Source: Apostichopus japonicus
Lineage: Eukaryota; Echinodermata; Holothuroidea; Aspidochirotida; Stichopodidae
Direction of reading: 5' to 3'
NCBI RefSeq assembly: GCF_037975245.1
Contig: NC_092574.1
Span: 11,619,213 to 11,683,212 of the forward strand
Length of the DNA: 64,000 nucleotides
Made by a program: the position numbers and the translations under genes. Under the pieces are notes generated by a model. That model had not been told where the DNA came from and did not search any database. It worked only from the letters and a program-made list of their open reading frames with translations. Numbering within the stretch: the stretch's first letter is position 1; each line of letters opens with the position of its first letter. This document shows, in pieces, positions 111 to 58,972 of the stretch.

Positions 111-1225
111 CTATTAATGTAGAAACATCCCTCTTTGACAATGGATGAACCAAATAGATTATTACTACAACACTAAACAGTTTGAAAGAAACAAACCCTT
201 GTATATGACCTCTGGCGGTCCACATAGGGACACTCAAACACCTCCCTCTGCACTCTTTGACAATGAATGAACCAATAGATTATTACTACAACACTAAACA
301 GTTTTGAAAGAAACAAACCCTTGTGTATGACCTCTGGCAGTCCCCATAGGGACACTCAAACACCTCCCTCTGCACTCTTTGACAATGAATGAACCAAATA
401 GATTATTACTACAACACTAAACAGTTTTGAAAGAAACAAACCCTTGTGTATGACCTCTGGCAGTCCCCATAGGGACACTCAAACACCTCCCTCTGCACTC
501 TTTGACAATGGATGAACCAAATAGATTATTACTACAACACTAAACAGTTTGAAAGAAACAAACCCTTGTATATGACCTCTGGCAGTCCCCATAGGGACAC
601 TCAAACACCTCTCTCTGCACTATTGTAATGGATGAACCAAATAGATTATTACTACAACACTAAACATTTTGAAAGAAACAACCCCTTGTATATGACCTCT
701 GGCGGTCCCCATAGGGACACTCAAACACCTCCCTCTGCACTCTTTGACAATGGATGAACCAAATAGATTATTACTACAACACTAAACAGTTTGAAAGGAA
801 CAACCCCTTGTATATGACCTCTGGCAGTCCCCATAGGGACACTCAAACACCTCCCTCTGCACTATTGTAATGGATGAACCAAATAGATTATTACTACAAC
901 ACTAAACATTTTGAAAGAAACAACCCCATGTATATGACCTCTAGCAGTCCCTATAAGGACACTCAAACACCTCTCTGTGCACTATTGTAATGGATGAACC
1001 AATACATTATTACTACAACACTAAACAGTTTGAAAGAAACAAACCCTTGTATATGACCTCTAGCAGTCCCCATAGGGACACTCAAACACCTCTCTCTGCA
1101 CTCTTTGACAATGGATGAACCAATAGATTATTACTACAACACTAAACAGTTTGAAAGAAACAAACCCTTGTATATGACCTCTGGCAGTCCCCATAAGGAC
1201 ACTCAAACACCTCCCTCTGCGTATT
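111..1225. repeat. Tandem repeat, about 121-bp unit, about nine copies
   Basis: The block GATGAACCAAATAGATTA recurs at about 144, 266, 387, 511, 631, 752, 872, 992 and 1112. Each unit also carries GACCTCTGGCAGTCC and CACTCAAACACCTCC. Copies differ by few substitutions and by a small deletion (CTCTTTGACAATG versus CTATTGTAATG). This is a local satellite-like array with no coding capacity. Confidence 0.95.
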
Positions 1226-3248: not shown

Positions 3249-6200
3249 CTTAGAGTTTGTTTTGAAAACTTTCCCACATTTTTCACAAGGGAAATCTGAA
3301 AATAGAAAGAAAAGAAGTATATAAAACTGAAATATATAAAACTGAATACCAATAGTACTAAGAAGCATGGCTCATGGAAACCCCCGAGTCGAGAAGCATT
3401 TACACACTGATGGGGCCACTCCAGCGTTGCCATAGAGGGCGCTGGCCTACGGTTTTTAATCTGCATAGTCCGTACTGCATGGTTACATATCTGTGAATCA
3501 TAGCGAGTCATGATCTTTTGAAGATTGCTCTTAAGCATGTGAACATGCTGGAGCACCTTGCATACAGTAGCACTGGGTGCTTGACTAAGTTCAAGGTTGT
3601 GCTGTTTGATCAAGCAAGAAACACAAGTTAATAATGTGCTTTAATAAACCAATTAGTTTGGATTGAAGCTTACCCTATCCCTACACCCTCCCCTCCTCTA
3701 CCACCCAAGATATGGCTGCAGAGCTGCAAAAAGTATTACATGAAAAGAGAATTTCACCAGACAAGTTATTCAAACCGCATTGCCAGAGGATTTTATTCTC
3801 TATTTGTAGCAAAATTTCATCAACTTCCACGCAAACAGCTGCCGCAAAGGAAAAAGGCTTTATATATGTTTTTATGTTTGCACACTTAGTCAAAAGTTCT
3901 GCCAACCAACTAACTATTCCTAAAAATGGACATTGTGCTTCATCAAACTAAGACAATTTGCTAGGGTTTTCCTACTCAAAAATAATAGTGATTTGATAAT
4001 AATTTTATGAAAGCCCAAAGTGGAAAAATTACAAAATGTTTGACTTAGACTTAGTACAAAACCTGATACAAATCTTGACAACCCAATACAATAAGTTTAT
4101 TACATATCAAGTTCATAAAGGGAGTTAGTATAGGATAGCATCAAGAACTTTTTTCAAAAAGAATTTAATTAAAATGCTTGGTTAAGACAATTTATACCAC
4201 TGTTTAATGAAAGTACTTACTTCTGTTATGGATTTCTGCTTTGTGCTTTCTCATCTGGCTCCACTTAAACACTAAGGTTTCACATCCAGGTACTTCACAG
4301 GTATACCCTGCAGGACGATTTCAATTTGTGTAATAAAAATAATGATAACTTAATATTTAATGGCCTGGCAAGCATGTGCATGTGTGAAAGCTGAAGATCT
4401 TATACAGTTTTCACACACTGCACATTGGGTGCTTCATCTATGGAGATTTGTATACAGTATACAGAGATGTGCCCAGGATTTCCTGAGTGCTGGGTATACT
4501 GATCGCCGTCCTTGGGGAGAGGTTTAAGGGGAGGGGGGGCCCCCTTTGAAGGTGCTCAGATGCCAAATGCTGGCACTTGTGTAGCTTTTTAAGCACATAC
4601 ACTAGTACTAGTTTTGCTAACAATTTACATTTTAAAAATTTGTTTAGTGAAATATATTACGTACCTGGTAAAAGTTATTAGTTTGTTTCAAAGAGATTTT
4701 ACAAGGGACCGATTGAGAGCCGTAAGTAATGTTTCTAGCATGCGTAACTGATGCATTATTAGTCTGTTTAACTTTGGCATAGGCAAGGCCCAATTTAAGT
4801 TGAATATATTGTTAGGAATGTCCGGATTTTAGATGAAAATAGTCATGGGCGGGATTCACGATTTTTAAGACAGTTCTGAGCGGATATCTTTTAGTGCTGG
4901 GCGGGGGCCGCCCAGTATGGGCACATCCCTGCACAAACATTGTTGACATTTGTACCAAAGACATAACTACAATTGATTTTTATAGTTAAAGGATGCTTGT
5001 AAGATAATACAGATAAGTCTCCTGTTGTTCTCTCTCTCTTATCCAACCAGATTGTAGCTAAAGCTTTGGCATTTTCCTTTCTACAAACAAGGCCAAACTT
5101 GGAAAGGATGGAGAACATGGAGAATTCTCATTCAACATTGTTCAAATATGAGCAAACAAACCTTCATGCGTTTTCTTGTGAGCTTTCAGTTTACTTGGTA
5201 CGGGAAATGCTCTACCACATCCTTCATAATCACACCTGCAAGAAAAAGATAATATGTAACAAAACATGTCCAAAGACACAACTGTCATATTTAAGGAATG
5301 GACACATTGCTGCCACTATGCAAAGAAACATGGCAAGTGTTGTGCCATCATAGAACCTTAGTAGTTTTGATTATTTCTGACAGACCAAAACTTAATGAAA
5401 CCCTGCCAAAGTGGTTGCAAATTCTATGTAAGTTATCAATTATATTCCTGTAGAGAGTTTGTATAGTTAACAAAAGACATGTTAGCTCGACACCCAGTGG
5501 TCACCCATTCAGTCAGAGGGGGCGGATGCCCACCCCCCCCCCCCCCCCCCCCCGACAGACTAAAATGGACTGCTGGTGCCCTTTTCAGCTTTTTACCACT
5601 TATTCGCGTTTTTACAACTTATTCGCGTTTATTGACTTTTTTATTGCACTCTCAAATACCTATTGGCATTTGTCACATTTTGTTGGTGTAATTTTCTGAC
5701 AAATGGGGATGACACCTATTTATTCTTCGTTTATCTGCAAATTAGCAAGGCCAGGAAAGGGTCATTTTAGGCGATCTAGGGAGTACCTTTACTTAAAAAA
5801 TTGTTGTACGCTCCGCGCCAACCTGTGGTGGCGCTCCGCTTAGATAGTGTCCAAAGTGCCCCTACAGACCATTCTCGCCCCCCGTGACCAATACCACTAG
5901 CTCCGCCACTGTCGACACCAACAAGACTTTAGGGTGATACAGAGTGATACAGAAGACATACTGCACTGCAGTCGATGTGCTCACAGCAACCTTTTTGAGG
6001 TCATTGATTTTTTAAATGCAATCTGATTCTTAAAACTACTCACAATGTGCATCTATGTGAAAAAACAACAAGGAAAGTCTTGGTAAGGACATGATCCCAA
6101 TGAGTTACCTCAGGGACACAATTAAATAAGCCCTGCATTTCTCTCAACTGAATTATCCAACCCTTAATGGGTGGCAATCCCTACATGGCCCTTTTTCTAA

Positions 6201-9200
6201 CTGCTGAGACTGCAAGTCAAAAACAACAGAATCTTGGATGTCCTGAAAACAGGGATCACTCCCCAGTTTTATTTGATATAACCCAGAAAAGGGCCAGGTA
6301 GAGATTTCAAGATAAAACAGTTTTGATGTCCTTATGCCTAAGTGAACAATGGAAAATGGTAAAGAGGCACAGAAACTTTTGGCTAGAATTATTCGAACCC
6401 AGTGACCTCCTGGGTCAAGCCCTGTATTCTACCAACTGAGCTATCCAGTCCTTATTGGGTGCCAATCTTTATGTGTATAGCTACTTTTTGGCTGGGGTTG
6501 GCCACAGTACAAGTAAGTACCTTGTATTGACAACCCAAACTCAAATACAGCTGGAAAGTGTGGAGGTGAGTATAAAATATTTGATATACCAACAAACAGA
6601 GCATTCTTCTATTAAAGTTCTTCTATAATCTCTAGGTACTTGGAGGATAATGCAATTTCATGAAAGGTCTAATGTGATCTACAACCGTATTTGTAAACAA
6701 ATGAGATTTTCAAATAGAGCAGAGTCAATTATTGAGGTTAAGGAAAACCTAAACACCTCAATCAAGAAAACTACTGCAAGCACTACCACACTCAGTTACT
6801 GTTAAAGGTCAAGTGACACATAGACTTGACTTTACATAATATTAAACTTAACAATTCTTACATTAAGAAAAACCCAACACCGCGATTTTTTCCCGTCTCC
6901 AAAGGGGTAGAAATCGGTAAAAAGTACTATTACGTAATAGATTCAGTGACGTCACGGGGGGGGGGGGGGGGGGAGCGCAGAAGAGTGCAAACTGTATATG
7001 TTCTGCGCAGTGCATTGGGTATGTAGAAATATCAAACATCTCGAAAATATTACCTTTTTCAGCAGTCTGTTACAAGAAAGTTAAGATTTGGATTAAGATG
7101 AAAAATCACAAATTGATACATAAGACATCGAACAAAACATCTTAATGACATCTTTTTGCATAAATTCCTTGCATTTTCTTCCTATCAAGCAACATAAACT
7201 CTGCAAAAATCGGCTAGATTGACTCGTTCAGGGAAAGTCGAAAACAAATGACGTCATTTGTTTACCAAGTCGAAAGTGCATGATATCGTCGCATGGAACT
7301 GCTTATTGCTACCACATACAGTTTCTATACACGCACTGTTGTACGCATATATACACAGCACAGCATACACAGCATAGCTTATACATATCGCGAAGTGGCT
7401 GCCGGTGGCATTGACACACAGTATTGAGATAGCAATTGATAGCGAAGAAGGCAGGGAAATGGAGGACATGGTCGACGATCGTGGGGAAGTTTTTCCCTAC
7501 ATGTTCGAACCGGAGACCAGCGAAGAGGAAGCGGGATCGGACAGCGATGTCGAAATTGATCGTCTTGACGGAACACAATGGTAACGTTACGCCTAGTGTA
7601 CTATACTGTATATAGGATAGTTGTGTTACTAGTTAGGCCTAGAACCGATAAATGTTCCTAACTTTGCTCATACTCTTAGCTAGCCAATTTGTTATGGGGC
7701 AGCAAAATTAACATGAGAGTGGGGTCGAGTTAAGTTAAGGAAGTTACTACTTTCCTTAAAAGTTGTGGCAGCACATGCCCCAGGAACATTTCACACTAAC
7801 ATATTTCATTTGGTTAGTAGATTGAATCAGCCAACTGGAAGAGTGCACAACAAATTCGGGGGTGGTCTATTATTATATTCCTAGCATTTGTAGTGGCAAA
7901 TTAGTGAAGTTACCACAAATCAGGGAAAGGGTGGGGGTGGGAGAAGGTGGCACCTGACACCAGCTTTTCGTCATTTCCGCTTAAGCTAATTTCATAACCA
8001 GATTTTCTCAATTGTCTAGGGAATGGATTCCGAAGTGGGAAAAAAAGAGTTGGAAACGAGGCATCATCGGCCTGTTTTTTTTCCTATTTTGACATGTTAG
8101 TATGCCCCAATAATTGAGGCCGGTATGAAGTCATTGAAAATTTGCTCTTTAGCATTTGAACTGGTTTGCATTGTTTACAGGTGTCATTGTGGCCAGTGTG
8201 CAGCTGTGATGCCTACACCAAGGGAGTGTAGATGCTGCAGGGAAATAGAAAAAGTAAGGAATGTGATGGATGAAGGTGCTGCATGCATCACCTTACACCC
8301 AGGTTTGAAGCTGTGTGCCTGAACCCATGAGTGCAACAGACAGCCTACTACTGTACATGTACCGTCAACAGTACGGATGCCGTGCACAGGAAAATAGCAT
8401 CCATGAGTAAGTAGAGAATACATTATATTTGTTGTATACCTTTATTCATTGCTCTGACCTGCTGTTGAATGATGTAACAATACAGAGGGTGTGCTTGTAT
8501 TCATAGTTTAGTTTTGTTGTGAAGGGAATTACATTAAGATATAGATTAGATCAAGAAAATGTGTGCACCATGTTCAAAACCTGCTTCTGATTAGGACATT
8601 TTGTGCAAAAACAAAAACTGGTGCAATGTCCTTGAGGTTAACCCTTATCATGCTGACTGACATAGTAGTCATTTACACTGAGCCACGGAACCAAATGCCA
8701 CACAAAAACTGTCCACCATGCTTGGGCATGATCCATTTACAAATTTTAGTCACCGAGATTCAATGATCAGTTTGTGTAAATTGCATAGCTAGGCCTAAAA
8801 CTTTAGGGGAGGCAGATTTAGGGGCCAATATAAATTCTGGAAATCATGTGGAGATTTATTTTAAAATTGACGTCCCCAGATGGCTACCAAGCTTTTGTGT
8901 GTCTTCATCTTTCATAGCTGGTTTTCATATGATTATTTTACAGGAAATACAGACACACAGCATACAGACAACTTGTACGGATGTGCTGGCAGTTTTTAGG
9001 GAAGGAGGTTTGTGTTGTTCTCCCATCCTGTTCAGTAAGGAGGATTCGAGCAGCTTTTCCATCTGAACAGTATGAATGGTTTAAATTACCAAGACTGTGA
9101 GAATGTGGACTTTGTATGCCAAGTCAAACTATCATTTCTGCAAAGTTTAATGAAACAGGGTTCGGTCCTGTCTGTTTTGTGGCTGAATGGTGAACATTTT

Positions 9201-12200
9201 GGAATTCCAGGATACATTTTTCTGGTTCATGGTATTAACTACAATCTTGGATGAAATTTTACTTTTTCAAGTTTGGGAAGTACATAACAGTAATAAATAA
9301 TAAAAACTCAAGTTAATTTTTTGTATGTATTCTCTCTTGTAACAAAAAAGCTGTAACTTCTAGTAGCCTGCCAACAAAATCTGGATGATTGAAATCTCAA
9401 ATATACTAGGTTAAAATAGAAGAACAGTTTGAATAAAGTAGCCTAAACCACTATGTCAATGGGATCTGGAGAGCTTAGGCTTTCATTTTAATAAAAGTGT
9501 AATGAAAATCAATCTGAAATTGTTCATTAATCCATGGAATATCAAGGTTACTTGATCATAAATGAGACAAAAAAAATCACATTTTATCCCATGCAGGGAA
9601 CAAACAGCAAATTTCTGTCAATTCATTTTGAACTTTTGTTTAAATATAATGTTATCATTTAGTTAGTTACAATGGAAACCAGATGTAAGTAAAACTTTAA
9701 TGTAAGACTTTAGCAACTTCCCTAAAGGCTGGTAGCAACCTGTTAATTAACACTGCTCTGCAGCTGTGCCAAAACATCATGTGAACAGACAATTCACAGA
9801 GTCGATTGCTCCCCACTACAATGAAACAAAATTAGAAATTGGGAGGCCATCAACCACTTCAGCAAAGCTTTTGAAATCTGCTTCGGTGTTGTTTTATGGC
9901 ATCCTCATTGTTGGGATGAACATAGGAGCTTGCAAGTGGTGGTGGCTCTTTTCTGACAGGAACAGGACACTCCTCTCCCAGAGTTCCACTTCTGCAGAAG
10001 TTGTGCAAGCAGTCAAAAAGTTCCCATATGTAATCTGTAGAATAGTAAAGATATGAAGAATAATATAATAATAGTTCACAAAAACATACCATTTAGATAG
10101 AGGCATTCCAATCACTCCATTTCGGTCAATAGTCATGGCACAATGCACAGTTGTCAGTCAAGTCTTTGGATGCCCAACTAAGGCGACAGCTGATACACCT
10201 CGATCGGTGTGGATACATGGGTCAGGTTTTACCTGACAACTTGTGCCTGAACAATTCCAATATATTTTTTACTGATTACAACAAAAACCCTACACCTGTT
10301 TGTGCACCTAATATTATGGATTATGTAATCTTCAGCAGGATGTGTGGTCATTGTCTCAGTAGCTTAACCACTGTTTATGTAGTAAAGTAAACATGGGGAC
10401 AGAGTAACATCCTGTCCCATCCACTTGTAATCCATGGTAAAAGAGTGTATAGGATGCAACTTTCACCATTTGTATTCAGTAGCAGATATCCAGCCAAGTG
10501 AAGATATAATATACTCTGTTAAATCCAACTACTTGTTTGTGCCTTTATTTCTTGTTCACATACAGCTGTGACAACTCTACCAGATACTGCATGTATATGC
10601 TAATTGAAGAAAAGACTGATGGCCTCACCACACATTCCAGACTGCCCCACAGTGTTGGTGTCAAAATTAATAATGATCCTCTTTCCAGAAAGTGATAGCA
10701 CCAATTGATTTGCCAGACTAATCTACTATCAATCTTGAAAATTACCTTGAAGCATCATCTTTGTCATGTTCAGATTCATCAGATGAGTGAACTGATGGAG
10801 TGTAGTCCGGACTACCTGGCGGTTTTTCGGTGTATCCCGATGAGGATGCCACAGCAGCAGACGGACCATCATCGCCACTGTGAGATGGCCCTGGTTGCAT
10901 TGATGGTGTTCTTGTCTCTGTTGGTCCAGTCAGCAACTTCAATGGTGGTAGGGGGACCAGTGAACACTGGACTTCTACATTCACTGAAAATTAGAATAAA
11001 CGCTTATTATACCACACACATACAGTAGGCTGCTCTTGGACAGGGGTCAGCTGCCTAGATGGTTCACTTATCTTTTCTCAAGGAGAGCATATCCTCCTAC
11101 TTTATGTGGCTGCAAAAATATGGGCCACTCACACCATGAGCATTGCAAATGACGAACAGCTTGGTTTCATATAGTATAACTACAATCTCCCTTCTCTCAT
11201 GAACTATAGATGTAGCCTATATATTTTCCTGTGAAGCCATCAGGTATAGCCTCCTCAACCACTCTCGTCAGGCAGGCGGATATGATGGATAAAATACAAT
11301 GTATGTTATCCCCTAGTCAGCCTGCCCTGATGTGCAGTTTTAGTTGCTGTTTTGCTTTCAACAAGTACTGTACTGTTTCTAAAATTTTGGCCCCTGTACT
11401 TACTTCTGCTATAGAATACTCTATAGATGTATGAAAGTTTTCCATTCTTCCTTGTATTACCCTAGCTTACACTTCTCCACATTTCCACCCCACCCCCCCC
11501 ATCCATCACTCTATTCATAGGCGTACGGGACCATTTCAGTTTGGGGGGGCAGAACTTTTTGTGCCCGAAAGTTCCCGTGACACTATCTAAGCGGAGCGCC
11601 ACCATCGGTTGGCGCATAGCGTACAAGAAAATTTTTGGCACACAATGCCTCTCAGATTGCCGGAAACGGCACTTCTAAGGCCTTGCAAGTTGCATCTAAA
11701 CATTCTTTATTTTATAATCTCACGTTTTAGAAATTTACACTTCCCCAAAAATTTGGTAAATTAGAAGAAGAAAAAATGGTAAAATCACTTTGAAGGGGAA
11801 AAATGGGACAGTATATTTTTTAAGCTCCTATTTAGTTACCTTATTTATTATTTTAACACAGTACTCAGCTACCTCCAGAAAAACATACATTGTTCAACGA
11901 CAGGTAGGCGGGATAATGTCGCTGTGTCGGGTGAGACTGCAATTTGTCTCACAAAAAAGTATAAAATATAACAAAGAATACGATAAACCTGTACTTCTAG
12001 GCTTGTATGCACTCCCCCCCCCCCACCATCCATGAAAAAGAAAATGTTTCTTATATACACTCATGTTGGGGATGTCCAGGTCAAGGGCGGCAGAAGCACT
12101 TTTAATCTGGGGGGGGGGGGCACCGACATCAAAGGGCACTTTGCAGAAATTCGATTAGACTGATGCAGCCTTATATTTAGAACCCTTTATAACTCTTATT

Positions 12201-12901
12201 GTATTATCTTATTTGTGTATACACATCACTCCATCAATGCCCCCCCCCCCCAAAGGAAAATATGCATACTAGCACTGCAATATCCAATGCGCAAATTGGG
12301 AAACAAGGAACAAGTTTTCTTTTGAGACAAAATGTGGTGAAATCATGCTAGTTGCTAATGTAGGAATCTTCCGAATTAGAGTTTTTTCTTGTTAATATCT
12401 TAACAAATTTTTTCCATTCGAAATAGCTTTGAGTTTGACCCACAGAAATTCATTAAAAGTCACAGGCTTAGCCAAGATTTGCAAAGTTGTATGCATGACT
12501 ATCTGAGCGGAGCGCCACCATCGGTTGGCGCGGAGCGTACTAGAAAATTGTTGGTTTTACAAACCCCTCAGATGGCCGGAAACGGCCCTTCCCGAGTGTT
12601 CATTCTGGTTCCCTGGCCTCTTGCTAACTTGAGGCACCTCAATTTTTATGTAGAAAAAAGGCACAGTTTTAACCTGCTCCAGTGCTCCCTGTGCCCTCCC
12701 CCCCGGTTCCGCCGCCCTTGGTCCAGGTATACAATTGACTAGTTAGAAAAAAATGATCGTGCAAAAAACGTGGTAGCCCAGATGTACTGCGCCAACGGTG
12801 GTGTTACACGGAAATATTCGGGCATCATGATGCTAAATAAAGAAAATCATGGAATTGTCGCGCAAAAATTTGAAAAAGATTCGGGCAAGCTACTGCATAT
12901 T

Positions 12902-12932
<31 letters not shown>

Positions 12933-15900
12933 ATAAATATATCCAGAGGACAAGAAATTCGGGCAAAAGTCCTGAAAAATTCGGGCAGCCTAAGAGGAGA
13001 AAAAAAAATATATATTTTTTTTTTCTCCTTTTCGGCTGCCCGAATTTTTCAAGCCTTTTGCCCGAATTTCTTGTCCTCTGGAAATTTGGGGGGGCAGTCT
13101 GCCCCCCTGCCCCCCGCCTCGTACGCCTATGACTCTATTTATGCCTATTTATGGGGACCTTTTGGGCGTAATACTGCTGCCTCCTTTTTGTCTGGTAGCT
13201 TGCCCCCCATATACATGCCTTGATGTTTTGCTAGTGGAGATTCCTTGTATCCCGTTCAAAACTGACTACTTAAATCTTTAATGCCTGTCACCACCCTCCC
13301 CTCACCCATTTCCCAACTGTTTTTCGGTAATTACAAGCACATGTATAAGATGATGCTACCTTTAGATGGAGATGTATTCTGCAGAATCCTGCCTTTGTAT
13401 TTTTACTGCAGTTGGTTGGGGAACAGCTTGTAGTGAAAATTGGGAAAGAAAATAACAAGGAAGTTATGAAAGTTCATTTAAGAAAGCAGTTTGATTTTTT
13501 TGAAAGCATGTGCACCTGTCACAAGCGTTTCCTCTTGTAACAAAAATTGCAGCCCTACCACCAAAAATGGCAAAATATAAGGATGTCATTTACTGTGCAA
13601 CATATGTGCTATGACTCTGAGTATGAAGATAGAAGGGAGCACATTATTGGGCAAAATGACATGTAAACATCTGATGCTTGTCATTCTGGATTCTTCATGA
13701 TGTACCACTGATCAAATGCTTCAGTAAGCCCTAGCCTACGCCTAACTTTATCGTCGCCATACCTTATTTAGGGCCTAACTAACTGAACGAAATTATAAGA
13801 ATTAGCCTACTGTAAGTTAGTAATAATACTAAGTTAGTCCTTGTAGTAGGCCTAGGCCAGAAAATACGCTTACTCTTTTCCGATCCAGCTTCGCAACTAC
13901 TGGTCTACTTGTTTCTATATCTCCTCGAGATTTGAAGATACTTTCTCCAAATAGAGAAGGAACGGCATTGTCTTGTAGACGACGAGCTGTTGGTGTTCCA
14001 AATCCAAGTTGCGCGGAAAGGCGATAGGAAACGAAACTTTAACTAGTGAAGTGCGCACTGCACACATAAGATTCGCTCGAAGGTCCAAGCCAATCTTTCT
14101 TAGGCAGCTAGGCTGGCTGAGTGCACTGGTACTAAGGTATCGCTGTATACAGTGTTTGACGAACAGGAAACTTTCTTGTACTGTTGTGCACCCATTCTCA
14201 TATGATATTTTGTTTACTGTCCGTGACATATTGTTTACGGCTTTGATCTCTGTTAGCATATTAGGCCTACTTAGTTTTGGTAACATTGGCGGTTCCCCCG
14301 TGACGTCATTATCTTACGGAATTAGCTTGGTTATTAACTTACTTAAAACAGCAAAGAAACAATAGTGGAGCTCCAAATTTGGAGTATAGGGTTTTGATAT
14401 GGAGCTTCTCAATTTGTGCAAGTTTGAAGGGAATCTATTACGTGTCACTTGACCTTTAAGAAGTAAAGACACAAAGCATGATCTGTAGCTGTGATATAGA
14501 AAGCAAGTTACAGGTGATCAGCATCTGGATACTTACATGTGAGGCAGAGTACCAGAGTGTTGGCAGGTATGGTACTTCAACTGATGATGCTTCTTAAATG
14601 CTTTCCCACAATCTGGCCAAGTACACTGTTAAATAACACAAACAGGGTTGAACAGGGTTACAGATACGTAGCAACTACTGTAACTGGTTGCTAATGGGTA
14701 ACCCGAGTAAGTATCCTGTTCTGTCCACGTGAAATTTATGATGACGGTAGCCGGATCTTCAAATCGACACAAAGTTTGGATAATCTCGATCACGCTGTGC
14801 AGATGTACTGTTAGAAACTTTCTATGTCACCTTGTTACAACTTTTAATACAAAAAGGAGAGCAAAATGATACCTGCCTTGGAATTGTTGGCAGCTGCTAT
14901 ACCTCATCATGTATTACCTGCATGCGATAAACCATATACTGTGCAGTGCTTGTGTAGTCACATCTGACTGTGATAGGCTGTTACTACTTACGTTATGGTA
15001 TTCTTAGATACAAGCACATTGAAAACATTTCACAATCAAGTCAATTTCTTATTATTATTGGCATCTATTTTTTTTATTGTAATTATTTTCATAACAAATA
15101 TAAGAATACTGTAAATGAAAATTTCATGGTTGCTTGTGTCATTATTTGACTTTAATCTTTAGACGAACTTTGATATCCATCGAAACTTGGAGGAAATCTA
15201 CACATTTTGACCAAATGCAGAGATATGTACCTTAAACTGCCTCTCCTGGTGAACCCTTTTCACATGTCGTTTCAAGCTTTCATTGGCAGCAAACTGCATC
15301 GTACAACCTTCTTCCTGACATCTGAAAATAAAAAGTGTTAAAAAATTTAGTTTAAGTGGCTGTTTACAGTAACACATAGCTTTACTAAATCTCTATTACA
15401 AATTACGTTTGATAAAGGATATTTGGACCAAACTGTCACTTTTGGCTTCTGAGATAGAGACACATGTGTGATGGAAATCTAACCATCCCCTAACCCCCCA
15501 CCACCACCACCACCCACCACCACCAAACCAACAGATAAGACACATGTTAAAGCATGATATTTAACACTTGAAGCAACCACTTCCTTGGTGGAATTATCAA
15601 TCACAAGCATCTTTATCATTTATGGTCAAGATTAATGCTCAAGGCTGGTTCGCTGCCCCATTAATTTTTGACCACCTGACTCTACTTGAGAATAAAGGCA
15701 AAAACCACAGACCTTCTTGGATATTTTTTAATTGTTAGACTTAAATGTCAACTTTAAACTTTTAAGTTTGATATTATTCTCAAACATTTTTCCAATATTT
15801 TAAACTTCATTCATAATTTTATTTGTTAGACTTAGTAACAAATTTTTTACTTTCAATTCTAAATGACTCATGTCAGTAATTTAGGAACTTTGTGGAATAA

Positions 15901-18382: not shown

Positions 18383-19850
18383 ACCGGTGTGAAGTTAGAT
18401 ACTTATTCCCCCGTTCCTCGTTCGACATTCGCGAATGAGTAACTGCTACCGATTCAGTTACGTATTCGACAATGGTATCGACGTAACACCTCTGGCATGA
18501 CGAAAGCTTTCTTACAAGATGTTCAACATTTGGTCGTGGAAAGAGGTTAATCTATGGTTCATATACTCTAATGAATATTTAGAAGGATACCGTAATGCAT
18601 CTTTTCCTGTCCGAATAGTTCTTGACCAACTAAAATGACCACTACTTCATCAGTTTCTAAATTAATGTAACGGGACCTGAAAAAAATCACTCTAGGCCAT
18701 AATCAAACTAGCACGCCTTGGACCACCTAACCAATGGGTCATAGGAATTCTTAACACATTGTAGAAGTATACCATAATGCGTCTTGACCGGTCCAAAGCG
18801 TGCTTGACCAATTAAAATGACCACTAAATCAACAATTTTTTAAATAAATGTAACAGGAACTGAAATAAAAACATTTGGGCCCTAATCAAAACCAGCACGC
18901 CTTGGATCACCCAACCAATGGGTCGTATGAACTCTTAAGTCATTGTAGAAGGGCACCACAATGCGTCTTGCCCCGTCCAAAGAGGGCTTGACCATTTTAA
19001 ATAACCACTAAATCATTTACTTCTTTCATGAGTGCAACAGGACCATAATAATAATAAAAATAATAATAATACACAGTTCTTATAAAGCGCAAATACACAC
19101 TTAAGTCTCAGTGCGCTGATTATTATTAACCCCTGGTCATTGGTAACTTGTCACACCCACACACCAAAGTGTGCACAATTCAGTCAATCTCTCCTGGGAC
19201 ACGACAGTGCACCACAACCACGTGTCCCCCGGGGGACTTCCCATAGGGTGCAGCCACAACCTTAGCTAAGAGTCTTTGGACCGGGCAAGACACATTATGT
19301 TACCCTTCTACAATGTCCTTAGACTTCCTATGATCCATTGGTTGGGCGGTCCAAGGCTTGCTGGTTTTGATTAGGGCCCAAATGTTTTTATTTCAGTTCC
19401 CGTTACATTTATATAAAAAAAATGTTGATTTAATGGTCATTTTAATTGGTCAAGCACTCTTTAGACCGGGCAAGACGCATTATGGTACTCTTCTACAATG
19501 CGTTAAGAATTCATATGACCCATTGGTAAGGTGGTCCAAGGCGTGCTAGTCTTGATTAGGGCCTAAAGTATTTTTGTTACATTAATTTAAGAACTGATGA
19601 AGTACTGGTCATTTTAGTTGGTCAAGAACTATTTGGACCGGGCAAGATGCATTATGGTACCCTTCTACATAGTCATTAGAGTTCATATGACCCATGGCCA
19701 TTGATAAACCCCTTTCCACGACCAAATGTTGAACATCTTGTAAGAAATAAAAGGACCATTGTCGAATACGTAACTGAATAGGTAGCTCAGTTACTCATTC
19801 GCGAATATCGAACGAGGAACGGGGAATAAGTATCTAACTTCACACCGGTG
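18383..19850. mobile_element. Large foldback element with tandem sub-repeats in its arms
   Basis: The left ACCGGTGTGAAGTTAGATAC and its complement at the right end mark inverted arms of roughly 650 bp. Arms include ATTCGCGAATGAGTAACTG and CAGTTACGTATTCGAC and their complements. Within the left arm a unit of about 182 bp (TTGACCAA.TAAAATGACCAC, then AATGGGTC) repeats at about 18580, 18762 and 18945; the right arm has the reverse. The centre (about 19030-19275) is a SINE-like insert. No coding frame or clear target duplication was seen. Confidence 0.85.
19030..19275 (-). repeat. SINE-like insert in the loop of the foldback element
   Basis: On minus this reads TGACCAGGGGTTAATAATAA, then a GCGCTTTATAAGAACTGTG tail and an (ATT)n run. 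It resembles the 3' part of the plus-strand SINE at 25107-25430 (TGACCAGGGGTAATATAATG, then AAAGCGCTTTGAGACG). Confidence 0.6.
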
Positions 19851-23750: not shown

Positions 23751-23763
23751 TAAGGTAGGCCCC

Positions 23764-23790
23764 ATGGCTACGTGCCATACAACGAGTTAA
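23764..23790 (+). promoter_or_regulatory. Possible short upstream reading frame of PRPS
   Basis: ATG in a good context (CCCCATGGC) opens an 8-codon frame ending TAA, out of frame with PRPS. If the transcript includes it, it could lower initiation at the main start. Confidence 0.3.
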
Positions 23791-23978
23791 CAAAGTCAAG
23801 CTCAGAAAATAAGCCTGCTGGTGATTATTCAAGAATCGCTAAAGAACATCTTTTAATGAAAACTGCTCGTGCATCATCAATATTAGGTACTGAAGAAAAG
23901 ATTGGCACCAGAAGCGTTAAATCAGAAGACTCACTAGCAACTTTCACAACAAGTGATTCAGCACGTGTACAGGCAAAA

Positions 23979-27803
<3,825 letters not shown>

Positions 27804-54248: not shown

Positions 54249-57200
54249 TCAACGCTTTTCAATTAGTTGCAGCCACTGTTTCCATCGCGGATAGGTATTC
54301 GGACTTCCCTGTTATATTTTTTTCTCCAACGTGTCATAATTGAATTGTTGTCAATGACGTAGCGATACCTACAGATTAATAAAAACAGAGGTTTAGACGG
54401 TTGATGGTAGTATAATGAGATGTTGTGATACTGGACCTAAGCATTTGTAATTTACACCCAATAAGTAGTGATTACCATCCACAAAGTATACATTATACTT
54501 TGTTGCAGTGATTAAGGATTATACTATAGCTAGCAAGGAAGCGTCTGGCAGACAACGCTTACATTTCTAACCAATAAGTGAGCTGTTGGTGTTAAAAATA
54601 GCTGCAGACATGTTCGGGTAATTTTATTTCTTTTGAAACTAAGGGAAAGTTTTCTCTTCATGATATCAAAATCTCATGTCTTATTGAAGTAAAGCACGTA
54701 AAGATATAGCAAGGATACACTGAAAAAGAGGCATTTGCGTACCAGCATTGAAGACCACACTGTATTCATATTATTCGTGGTGATTCCGGGAACAAGGCAA
54801 TTTTCCTATGTGTGATATAACTGTTAGTCGAAATGTTACTATCACAAGCATTATATATAGTCATGACTTATTTCACAGAGTATCCCAGTAGTAGGAAGTA
54901 CGACATGTACTTGTTATCTTATTATCACATATGAAGATTTTGTTTTAAACACTAGACATTGTTGATGGTTACTTATTTCCACCAGACAAACTGTATACTT
55001 TACTCAAATACATTTATCACATGCTTATATCTTTTCTTCTAAAATGTTAGCGGGTTTTACTTGAAATGTTTCAACGAAAAGTTCACAATTAGACATCATA
55101 AATTCAACAGACAGACAAGATTAAGTAGTATATATGGTATTTCCCTAATGTTGCGGTCCATTACTAAAGTAACAATAATAAACTTTCAATTTATACCAGT
55201 ATTTTGCCCTTACCTGTCTATTTGCAAGAAAAGTAGCTACAATATGCTGTTAAGCGACATGTCTTCGCAAATGTGTAAAACAAATTCAGTTTGTCAACGG
55301 ACAACCCATCTAATGAAATTCAAAGTTCGCCTCTTGTCATCGTTATATATATGTTACAGTATTACGTAACATAACATATCATGTAATGCTTCGTTGGAAT
55401 CTACATACACTCACCCTTTAACCGCACCATTCCCGTCTGGCTTTGTATACTCCAATGTATTACTGCCAATTAACAAGTACTGCCTAATTCTTATATCGGG
55501 ACAACGACAAGCTCTGCTGAGCCAGAACTCACGAGAGTCATGGATATGGACATCTCTTTCATCACCTATGGAATCGAAAGAAAGGCTTGTAATTAGATAT
55601 CATTTTCTGTGGAATACTGGAAACATCATACGAATGGCAGCATTAGTTAAAACCCTTGATGGTTGAAATGTATAAATGTCTTCAAATATATACAGAAAGT
55701 TAAGCTGGCGCACGTATTGGACATCATGAGATATCGCAGAATTAATTTCAAAAAATTGTGTTGATTCTGTGCAACTTCGATACTGTTATAAAACTAAAAT
55801 CAGACAAATCATAAATCGTACCAAAATCAGACAATTTCGATAGCAATGAGTGTAGCAAGTCAACACATGGGCTGCGATCGTTTATAACATCTGGTTTTTG
55901 GTTCCTGTGCGATTAAAGTCTTCTTTTTAATCTTTTGTGCTTATTTAATTTTCTTGGTTTCCATTTAAGGCTATTGTTGTCAAGACCACAACTATACTCA
56001 CTGCAACGTGGAATTGATTTCAATGCTAACTTCTGGCTGCAGATTCAAGTTTACAGATTGCTTTGGTATCTGTCGGTTGTTTCGCACAGTATTTCTATAA
56101 TAGTCGTTGCTTACTATTACAGAGGACCATCCAACATACAACGAAGTTAATACGTTGAATGGCAGCAATTAGTAACCAAATTATACCAGCAAGTCTAGTT
56201 TTGAACTGTACAAATTGGGTTACCACCACTAGCATTTTATAACACAATATAGCATTTAAATATTGTTGTAGTAATGTTGAATTTCCTCCATAAATCCGTC
56301 TGCAAATGTCTTTTTAATACTGCATAAACATTCAAATTATTAATTGTCGGCACAGCGAGTGGTAAGTCATAGCCTTTATACTTTCTGGTTTATTTTCAAG
56401 TAATTCAATGTTTGAATAATGCTGTGTCCAAAAATGTCAAGGCAACGAAAGTTTCTCTTTCGAATGTAACTTAATTAGTGCTATCTAAAAGATGTTCATT
56501 TGGTGAACGAAACTATATATTTCGTACTATTTTTAACGTATATTTCCTCCATTTGTCATTTGTCATTACCTCTCTTAATTGGATCCAAAATAGTTGCGTT
56601 GACGACTTTGTATCCGTCTTCCTCTCGTATGTTCGTAACCTGCAAATAGTACACTAAACGAAGAACAACAAAAGACATCGAAATATTATGAAAAAATATC
56701 TTGGACATGTTTTGAATAGACTGCAGGATAAACAAACACTATGGTACTGTGATAATTTTCAATATTTTCTGTATACAGTCAAAACGCTAATAATTTCTAG
56801 TCAAACTCAAGTGTGCGCTACCATGCTATTTGTTGCATCATCACTACTTGCAAGCATCGAACTAAAGGATAAACTTGAGACAGAATTTTAGTATGGATGG
56901 TTGATAATCCAACAAGAAATGCAATAATTTCAACGGCTGGTGTTAATGTTATCGGTTTTCAAGAAGTTCACTTTTAAAATATTTTGAAATGACCAGAATA
57001 TATAAGTCGCACATTCTGATGACTCAACCACTATAGAAGTTATGTATCTGAGACCATATCTCCTTGAAAAATTAAGTCGTACATTCTGATGACTCAACCT
57101 CTATAACAGTAATGTATCTGAGATCCTAATTTCCTTGAAAAATTTAGTCGTACATTCTGATGACTCAACCACTATAGCAGTTATGTATCTGAGACCATAT

Positions 57201-58972
57201 CTCCTTGAAAAATTAAGTCGCACATGCTGATGACTCAACCTCTATAGCAGTAATGTATCTGAGATCCTAATTTCTTTGACAAGTTAAGTCGTTCATTCTG
57301 ATGACTCAACCACTATAGCAGTAATGTATCTGAGATCCTAATTTCCTTGATATATTAGGTCGTACATTCTGATGACTCAACCACTATAGCAGTTATGTAT
57401 CTGAGACCATATCTCCTTGAAAAATTAAGTCGTACATTCTGATGACTCAACCACTATAGCAGTAATGGAGCTGGGACCATATCTCCTTGACAAATAACCT
57501 GTGAGTATCTTCTCGCTCACTGTAAGGTGCTAGTGAGAAGTTGCTCACTGTCATACTCATGAGAAGTTGCCCACTGCCTCAATGCTTTCTACTAATTAGG
57601 GATTTCGATTACTCACTGTTGGAACAAAAGAATTTACTCGGGAGGAATCTTCATTTTCTCACTTGCTCATAGTTGTGCAGTTGAGTTTGTGTTGAATACT
57701 CAGACTGCTCACTCTTTAGTAATGTCAGTTAATCTAGTTGGTCACTATGCATTTAGCAAATTCGATTAATGGTAAGGTATTGCGGCCCGTTTGCAGACTC
57801 GTTCCTCGCGTATATATCTCTCACTGGTCCAACCATTAAAGGTATCTCCACTCTTTTCTGGTTTCTCACATGCGCTGTGTTGAAACTGTTGACTTTCGGC
57901 GAGCGTTGCAATACCAACGACCACTTAGAGATTGTTTTTATTAGTAAATGATGATAATGAATAGGATATATTATTATTTTGAAATGAAAATTCATATCAG
58001 ATGTTTAATACTGCTGTGTAGCCCATGGCCAATGTCGATGCTGTGAGGATTGCACACAACGTCTTCAGTGATGATGACAATTAAGGCACATTTGTGACAG
58101 ATGAAAAGATCTTATGTCAAAATATACTTTACCATATGTTTGAGCACTAACACAGGCAGCGATTAATAGTTCACCAGTATCCGGACTATCAAAACAAGGA
58201 GGGCATTCACCTTGAAAGAAGATAGAAAAAGGTGATGTAAACACACGTATTCCCAAAGAACGGTTCCGTGCCAAGTTCGCTTCATACTTAGTGAATGAAT
58301 TCACTCCAAGAAAAGACTGATCACTCCGAACACTTTCAATCGATTTCTCACATGTTTGCAGTTAAGAGTTTATTTTATATTCATAAAGACATATCAAAAC
58401 TGAAGAAGTTAACTCATAAACATCTGTGCAGAAGTATTACTTTACTTTACTTCGATCATTTCAAATGTTTAGCTTTGATGACAGAATGATATTCTTATCA
58501 CTCTTCATTTGCAAAGCTTTAAGAATTAGAATAATCTTGTTGGTTCAATTGATCGATTCAGCTCTAAAGGAGGCATTAGCTGATGTTAAAGAATGACCTT
58601 ATGCCTAGAATGACCTAAGAATGACCTTAGGCAGAATTTAAAAGACTCGAAATGTTATAGTCAAAGACAAATTATTATATGTTACATTTAATGCTGAAAC
58701 TTTGCAATACTCCTTTAATGGTATATATATGATGACTTCAGCTCCTCAGTCCGCACTGTAAGCATAACTTTTAATATTTACCCATTGCTTTAAAAATTAG
58801 AAAAATATTCTAGATTTCTAATGTACCATGAATACGCTTTTTGTGTCCATATGGATGTTTTCATTTTGAATCTTGTGTTGCATCTGAGGTACTAAATACG
58901 ACACAATGGTCGCTGTGTTACACTAAGTAGTCCATGCTCATTAAATTGATGAATTCAGATGTTTAAATGGTC

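What the first reader, a model, noticed from the sequence alone, without database searches (positions are those of the whole stretch)
6806..14455. TTAA-flanked 7.65-kb transposon carrying a P2X7 C-terminal-type domain gene and a THAP-type gene
The sequence shows exact 14-bp inverted ends, TTAA on both sides and a second inverted block about 150 bp inside each end. One P2X7-C-like gene (plus) and one THAP-like gene (minus) lie inside. Kolobok transposases are known to carry THAP domains and to target TTAA. The P2X7 'ballast' homologues are known as stand-alone invertebrate proteins. A direct physical link of that domain to a TTAA transposon would explain how the domain spreads and could bear on how P2X7 gained it.
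Basis: partly seen in the sequence, partly recalled or inferred. Interest (0 to 1): 0.88.

Follow-up and report, generated by a model that had tools for sequence, protein, structure and literature searches.

The report
Decayed Kolobok transposon carrying KolX gene
This is a worn-out copy of a repeated jumping-DNA family in an animal genome that carries a broken relative of the tail of the receptor P2X7; the tie between such transposons and P2X7 was published in 2022, and this genome adds further examples.

Summary
Window 6802-14459 is a transposon with exact 14-bp inverted ends, each flanked by TTAA (0 of 200 shuffles gave even a 12-bp pair). It carries a P2X7-C (PF20478) gene on + and a THAP remnant on -. 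Both are broken in this copy, and a 1,616-bp hAT-like element is nested inside.

The genome (671.6 Mb) has at least 39 further left ends. I fetched 20: 20 carry P2X7-C exons and have TTAA at the left end; all 15 whose right end was found have TTAA there. No DDE transposase core was seen in them. It is a multi-copy, nonautonomous Kolobok-type family.

Elsewhere in the genome, 27 of the 33 strongest P2X7-C matches have a Kolobok transposase match within 7.2 kb, all 27 convergent (about 0.06 expected).

The link is in print: Kojima & Bao 2022 (PMC9587614) named this protein KolX, recognised the P2X7 ballast domain in it, and derived P2X7 from a KolX fusion. So: a new member of a known kind. Not settled: empty site, helper element, host species, and a P2X7-like gene without a transposase nearby (L036).

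The parts
6802..14459 (.). Whole element with both TTAA sites (7,658 bp; 6,034 bp without the nested element and one copy of its 8-bp duplication)
   Evidence: ends; related copies
6802..6805 (.). Left TTAA target-site copy
6806..6819 (+). Left terminal inverted repeat AGGTCAAGTGACAC
6929..6960 (+). Left subterminal inverted block
   Evidence: score 32 against a highest of 31 in 500 simple shuffles
7459..7580 (+). KolX (P2X7-C) exon 1
   Evidence: GT donor; present in most copies
8181..8395 (+). KolX exon 2, broken (two frame breaks, one stop)
8944..9100 (+). KolX exon 3 with stop codon; P2RX7_C over the family cut-off on its own
   Evidence: PF20478, 1.7e-7
9863..10034 (-). Conserved stretch, perhaps the C-terminal exon of the former transposase gene (weak)
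   Evidence: comparison with transposases mostly at chance level
10748..10983 (-). Linker exon downstream of THAP
   Evidence: splice borders read by eye; in 20 of 20 fetched copies
11508..13139 (.). Nested hAT-like element 11516-13131 with 12-bp inverted ends and 8-bp duplication ACTCTATT
   Evidence: the name hAT rests on recalled features
13874..14107 (-). THAP remnant (second half of the domain, one in-frame stop)
   Evidence: PF05485, 2e-5
14295..14322 (-). Right subterminal inverted block
14442..14455 (-). Right terminal inverted repeat
14456..14459 (.). Right TTAA target-site copy

Best explanation
A dead, nonautonomous copy of a KolX-bearing Kolobok-type DNA transposon. Its family (typically about 6.2 kb) was spread by cut-and-paste into TTAA sites, moved in trans by a DDE transposase made elsewhere, because neither this copy nor the 20 others fetched shows a DDE core. 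KolX is a transposon accessory gene: in this genome it is the regular convergent neighbour of the Kolobok transposase. The THAP piece is probably what is left of the DNA-binding front of this lineage's own transposase after an internal deletion. Shown: ends, TTAA, copies at distinct sites, KolX and THAP content, broken frames, and the KolX-transposase pairing elsewhere in the genome. Inferred: movement in trans, the internal deletion, and what KolX does (a zinc-bound accessory factor of transposition is my guess).
For: TTAA and exact ends. 20 of 39 other left ends fetched: all 20 with TTAA at the left end and KolX exons, all 15 with a found right end have TTAA there, 14 of those with distinct flanks. 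KolX = PF20478. THAP, as in Kolobok transposases of Xenopus (PMC6004289), whose full-length copies have AG ends, TTAA and 6.8-13.9 kb. In the same genome an open KolX frame and an open DDE transposase frame lie convergent inside TTAA ends, and 27 of 33 strong KolX matches sit beside a transposase match, 27 of 27 convergent.
Against: No autonomous copy with these ends was found, and the search meant to find one did not complete, so the helper is unknown. The stretch 9863-10034 resembles the C-terminus of one transposase better than 298 of 300 shuffles but of the other two only at or near chance (141 and 23 of 300 shuffles as good), so the internal-deletion reading is weak. Absence of a DDE core rests on Pfam and on three transposases of another lineage; Pfam also missed one clear Kolobok transposase. 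No empty site was shown. 19 of 39 other left ends were not fetched.
Confidence: 0.85

Rival explanations
1. It is a piggyBac-type element that carries KolX; [quoted passage not shown]
For: TTAA target; PMC9587614 reports such piggyBac families (passage).
Against: Ends are AG...CT, the Kolobok rule 5'-RR...YY-3' given in PMC9587614 as the difference from piggyBac. A THAP domain is present. The piggyBac versions are said to lack most of the seven cysteines; here all seven are present by my count.
Confidence: 0.05
2. A host ballast gene was captured by a transposon, so KolX is cargo here and not a transposon gene.
For: Stand-alone ballast genes were described as host genes across animals (PMC7016195, section 11); L036 has such a gene with no transposase match within 12 kb.
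Against: 27 of 33 strong KolX matches pair with a Kolobok transposase in one orientation, and the Kol0 lineage is defined by KolX (PMC9587614). Several of the 33 are near-copies of one another, so they are fewer than 33 independent cases.
Confidence: 0.04
3. The family keeps KolX and THAP products on purpose: a two-protein parasite, or repressor, of autonomous Kolobok elements.
For: 20 of 20 fetched copies keep KolX exons and the linker exon; in L014 and in L021/L022 all three KolX exons read without a stop over nearly their whole length.
Against: In the larger group 11 of 14 copies have a stop in KolX exon 3 and the other three a frame break there; the last zinc cysteine is a tyrosine in the ten such copies printed. 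The THAP exon has a stop in 17 of 19 copies showing it. So most copies spread or persisted with broken products.
Confidence: 0.05

Closest known systems
Kolobok superfamily, Kol0 lineage with KolX (Kojima & Bao 2022, PMC9587614)
   Same: TTAA sites, RR...YY ends, KolX protein with the P2X7 ballast domain
   Different: No DDE core found in the window element or its 20 fetched relatives; genes broken; this family was not found named in the papers searched
Xenopus Kolobok (XKol) and T2-MITE (PMC6004289)
   Same: TTAA, AG ends, THAP domain, full-length copies of similar size; nonautonomous members moved in trans
   Different: Xenopus transposase frames are intact; that paper's text has no mention of KolX or P2X7
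P2X7 receptor C-terminal ballast domain (PF20478)
   Same: Same domain; by my count on the alignment R546, H547, A549, Y550, P570, C572, R578, F581 and P582 and the seven zinc cysteines are kept
   Different: P2X7 is a fusion with a channel; here the domain is a separate, broken, three-exon transposon gene
KolobokP (PMC9587614)
   Same: Same superfamily, TTAA
   Different: No long terminal direct repeats and no His-Me nuclease match here

Membership tests
Kolobok superfamily | TTAA 4-bp target-site duplication | tested here: met
   window and all 15 copies with both ends found
Kolobok superfamily | Termini 5'-RR ... YY-3' | tested here: met
   AG...CT in the window and in the 15 two-ended copies
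Kolobok superfamily | Kolobok DDE transposase encoded | tested here: not met
   no Pfam DDE match in the element, no match to three Kolobok transposases of this genome beyond chance in the window or 20 copies; so at most a nonautonomous member
Kolobok superfamily | THAP domain (common in its transposases) | tested here: met
   second half only, PF05485 2e-5, one stop
Kolobok Kol0 lineage | KolX protein with P2X7 ballast domain | tested here: met
   PF20478 2.7e-15 on the read-through; the gene is broken
Kolobok Kol0 lineage | Place in a tree of DDE cores | not testable with these tools
   no DDE core in the element
KolobokP | Long terminal direct repeats of about 450 or 660 bp | tested here: not met
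   longest direct repeat within 6500-14800 is 57 nt and internal
piggyBac | TTAA target | tested here: met
   shared with Kolobok
piggyBac | piggyBac transposase | tested here: not met
   no such Pfam match in six frames

The most novel reading that the evidence does not exclude
KolX is an essential transposition factor that hosts repeatedly domesticate. In this genome the stand-alone P2X7-C gene without a nearby transposase (L036, frame C19:11523646-11524284) would be one more independent domestication, parallel to the event that built P2X7, and the window family would be a parasite that keeps KolX and THAP pieces while borrowing the catalytic enzyme.
Probability: 0.12. Interest if true: 0.6.

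Novelty: new member of a known kind. Interest (0 to 1): 0.36.

Why it matters
It confirms, in one more animal genome and with numbers, that the P2X7 ballast domain is at home in Kolobok transposons: at least 150 domain matches, and 27 of the 33 strongest beside a Kolobok transposase in one fixed orientation. That supports the published view that P2X7 took its tail from a transposon. It also warns that stand-alone 'ballast' genes in invertebrate gene lists should be checked for transposon ends before they are treated as host genes.

Tried and rejected
Tried without result. (1) Protein homologue search with KolX: service switched off, so no relatives from other species were compared directly. 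(2) Viral and prokaryote collections for the ends and for KolX: no match. (3) Empty site: flanks of 14 copies and the window joined; the window's site was sent twice and not answered. (4) Autonomous partner by a THAP-plus-linker query: not answered. (5) P2X receptor genes in the genome, to look near L036 (PF00864): not answered; Pfam on the + strand of the 7 kb before L036 gave nothing. (6) Tree of P2X7-C domains: 8 rows, 4 of 5 inner branches open, long branches; uninformative. (7) Species: not determined.

Considered and rejected: piggyBac element (ends), KolobokP (no long direct repeats), captured host gene (pairing of KolX with transposase), chance ends (shuffles).
Full report
WHAT IS THERE. 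Window 6802-14459 is bounded by TTAA-AGGTCAAGTGACAC and its exact inverse. Among TTAA-flanked inverted pairs within 10 kb the window has one of 12 bp or longer, this one; 200 dinucleotide shuffles gave none. A subterminal inverted block lies inside each end (6929-6960 and 14295-14322); it beats the best of 500 simple shuffles only narrowly, 32 against 31.

GENES. On + there are three exons with GT/AG borders (7459-7580, 8181-8395, 8944-9100). Their read-through matches PF20478 (P2RX7_C) at 2.7e-15 and solved P2X7 chains at 8.5e-8; exon 3 alone is over the family cut-off. Exon 2 has two frame breaks and a stop, so this copy makes no full protein. By my count the seven zinc cysteines, and the residues matching R546, H547, A549, Y550, P570, C572, R578, F581 and P582 of P2X7, are still there. 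On - lies the second half of a THAP domain (PF05485, 2e-5, just over its cut-off) with one in-frame stop, then a linker exon (10748-10983) and a conserved stretch (9863-10034). Six-frame Pfam scans of the element find only these two domains. A 1,616-bp element with 12-bp ends and an 8-bp duplication is nested at 11516-13131 (the name hAT is from recalled features). Without it and one copy of its duplication the element is 6,034 bp.

OTHER COPIES. The genome is 671,581,487 bases in 35 contigs. The left 211 bp has 41 matches, 88-100% identical: the window, 39 other left ends, and one partial repeat inside a copy (L010). Only 40 of 115 candidates were scored, so the count is a lower bound. All 20 have TTAA at the left end. 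In 15 the right end was found, and all 15 have TTAA there; 10 of the 15 are 6,133-6,252 bp, the others 5,485, 5,650, 5,652, 6,854 and 7,441 bp. KolX exons are in 20 of 20, the linker exon in 20, the C-terminal stretch in 19, THAP in 18; L009 and L011 lack THAP, and in L009 the matched part runs to near the end of the fetched stretch. L021 and L022 share flanks and are 100% identical, and L016 and L018 share the left flank at 99%, so these are duplicated DNA and not independent insertions.

TWO GROUPS. Substitution identity between copies is 93.5-100%. Fourteen copies form one group (96.1-99.0%); the window, L009, L011, L014 and L021/L022 form another; L028 stands apart. In the larger group 11 of 14 have a stop in KolX exon 3 and the other three a frame break there; a tyrosine stands in place of the last zinc cysteine in the ten copies of this group printed. 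In 17 of the 19 copies (window included) that show the THAP exon the best match holds at least one stop; I did not check for each copy that it is the same stop. In L014 and L021/L022 the KolX exons read without a stop over nearly their whole length.

NO DDE CORE SEEN. Three Kolobok transposases of this genome match nothing beyond chance in the window (best E 0.28) or the 20 copies (best E 0.67). Against over-reading this: those three belong to another lineage, and Pfam missed the DDE core of one of them (L032). The C-terminal stretch compared with the three transposases is equalled by 2, 141 and 23 of 300 shuffles, so its identity as a transposase end is only suggested.

KOLX AND TRANSPOSASE IN THIS GENOME. 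PF20478 has 150 matches over its cut-off (150 of 471 candidates scored) and none in 14 control genomes. Around the best one an open KolX frame (170 aa, 1.6e-35) and an open DDE transposase frame (556 aa, PF20700 2.4e-7) lie convergent, inside TTAA ends with a 9-bp exact inverted repeat AGGCCAGAT, C7:8076123-8088221 (45 x 40 TTAA pairs compared). Of the 16 top stop-free matches I fetched seven: four (L029, L032, L033, L034) have an open convergent transposase frame, L035 a broken one, L031 decayed fragments, and L036 none. Genome-wide the transposase query gave 91 matches (78 of 294 candidates scored), 55 loci after merging. Of the 33 P2RX7_C matches with 60 bits or more, 27 have a transposase match 468-7,111 bp away, all 27 downstream and convergent; about 0.06 pairs are expected by chance. 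Several of the 33 are near-copies of each other, so they are not 33 independent cases. The six without one are C17:16725225 (L031, fragments by tblastn), C17:1719889, C17:20260281, C15:2159299, C19:11523823 (L036) and C2:5853532. The other 117 matches were not tested for pairing.

HOW IT WORKS (INFERENCE). KolX is the regular partner gene of Kolobok transposases here. The window family kept its ends and internal parts but shows no catalytic core, and sits at many TTAA sites. The simplest reading is movement in trans by a Kolobok transposase; the helper was not identified. Most copies of the larger group carry a broken KolX, so KolX is probably not needed in cis. What KolX does is unknown; an accessory role in the transposition complex, using its zinc fold, is my best guess.

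WHAT IS KNOWN. PMC9587614 (first of six parts, section 10 and passages read) says that KolX of the Kol0 lineage is similar to P2X7 region 476-595, adopts the ballast fold with seven conserved cysteines, that P2X7 arose by fusion of a P2X4-like gene with KolX, and that nanor is likely a domesticated KolX. PMC7016195 (passages and section 11) described stand-alone ballast proteins; its text holds no word beginning with 'transpos' or 'Kolobok'. PMC6004289 (passages) gives THAP, TTAA and AG ends for Xenopus Kolobok. The searches P2X7 + Kolobok, KolX + Kolobok, P2X7 + domesticated + DNA transposon + ballast, and nanor + P2X7 + transposable element listed no other paper that makes the link (of the others I looked at passages of PMC9319628 only, where both words are unrelated). 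I saw this particular family named in no paper of those searches or (listings); Repbase was not available.

VERDICT. New here: one more multi-copy, KolX- and THAP-bearing Kolobok-type family without a visible DDE core, and a genome-wide count of the KolX-transposase pairing.

Noticed in passing
L036 347-985 + (C19:11523646-11524284): Open 213-aa P2X7-C frame, matching solved P2X7 at 3.1e-15, with no Kolobok transposase match within 12 kb and a galactose-3-O-sulfotransferase gene about 4.6 kb downstream: a candidate host (domesticated) gene.
   Followed up: partly
window 11508-13139: Nested hAT-like element with 12-bp ends and 8-bp duplication; inside it a 70-nt inverted repeat (12939-13085) and two copies of a 57-nt unit also found at 5795-5851.
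   Followed up: partly
window 23754-25135: Two exons of a ribose-phosphate pyrophosphokinase gene on + (PF13793); a tRNA-Thr-like match overlaps the end of the second open frame at 25116-25188.
   Followed up: no
window 18383-19849: Two arms of about 600 bp, 85% alike and inverted, with internal tandem units of 184 bp: fold-back-like.
   Followed up: no
window 131-1220 and 57003-57495: Tandem arrays with units of 122 bp (9 copies) and 71 bp (7 copies).
   Followed up: no
L032 and L033 (C9:3887000-3895999, C21:13380000-13388999): Two places on different contigs are 98.8% alike over nearly all of the 9 kb fetched, with an open KolX-transposase pair; the ends were not reached.
   Followed up: partly
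L014 and L011: Copies of the family with inserts: in L014 a long frame that reads like a LINE reverse transcriptase, in L011 a 250-aa frame that looks like part of another transposon; both judged by eye only.
   Followed up: no
G000, rows at about 30 bits: Dozens of P2RX7_C matches share profile positions 143-192 and one TGA; they look like exon 3 of the window family's larger group, which would make that group far more numerous than the copies fetched.
   Followed up: no
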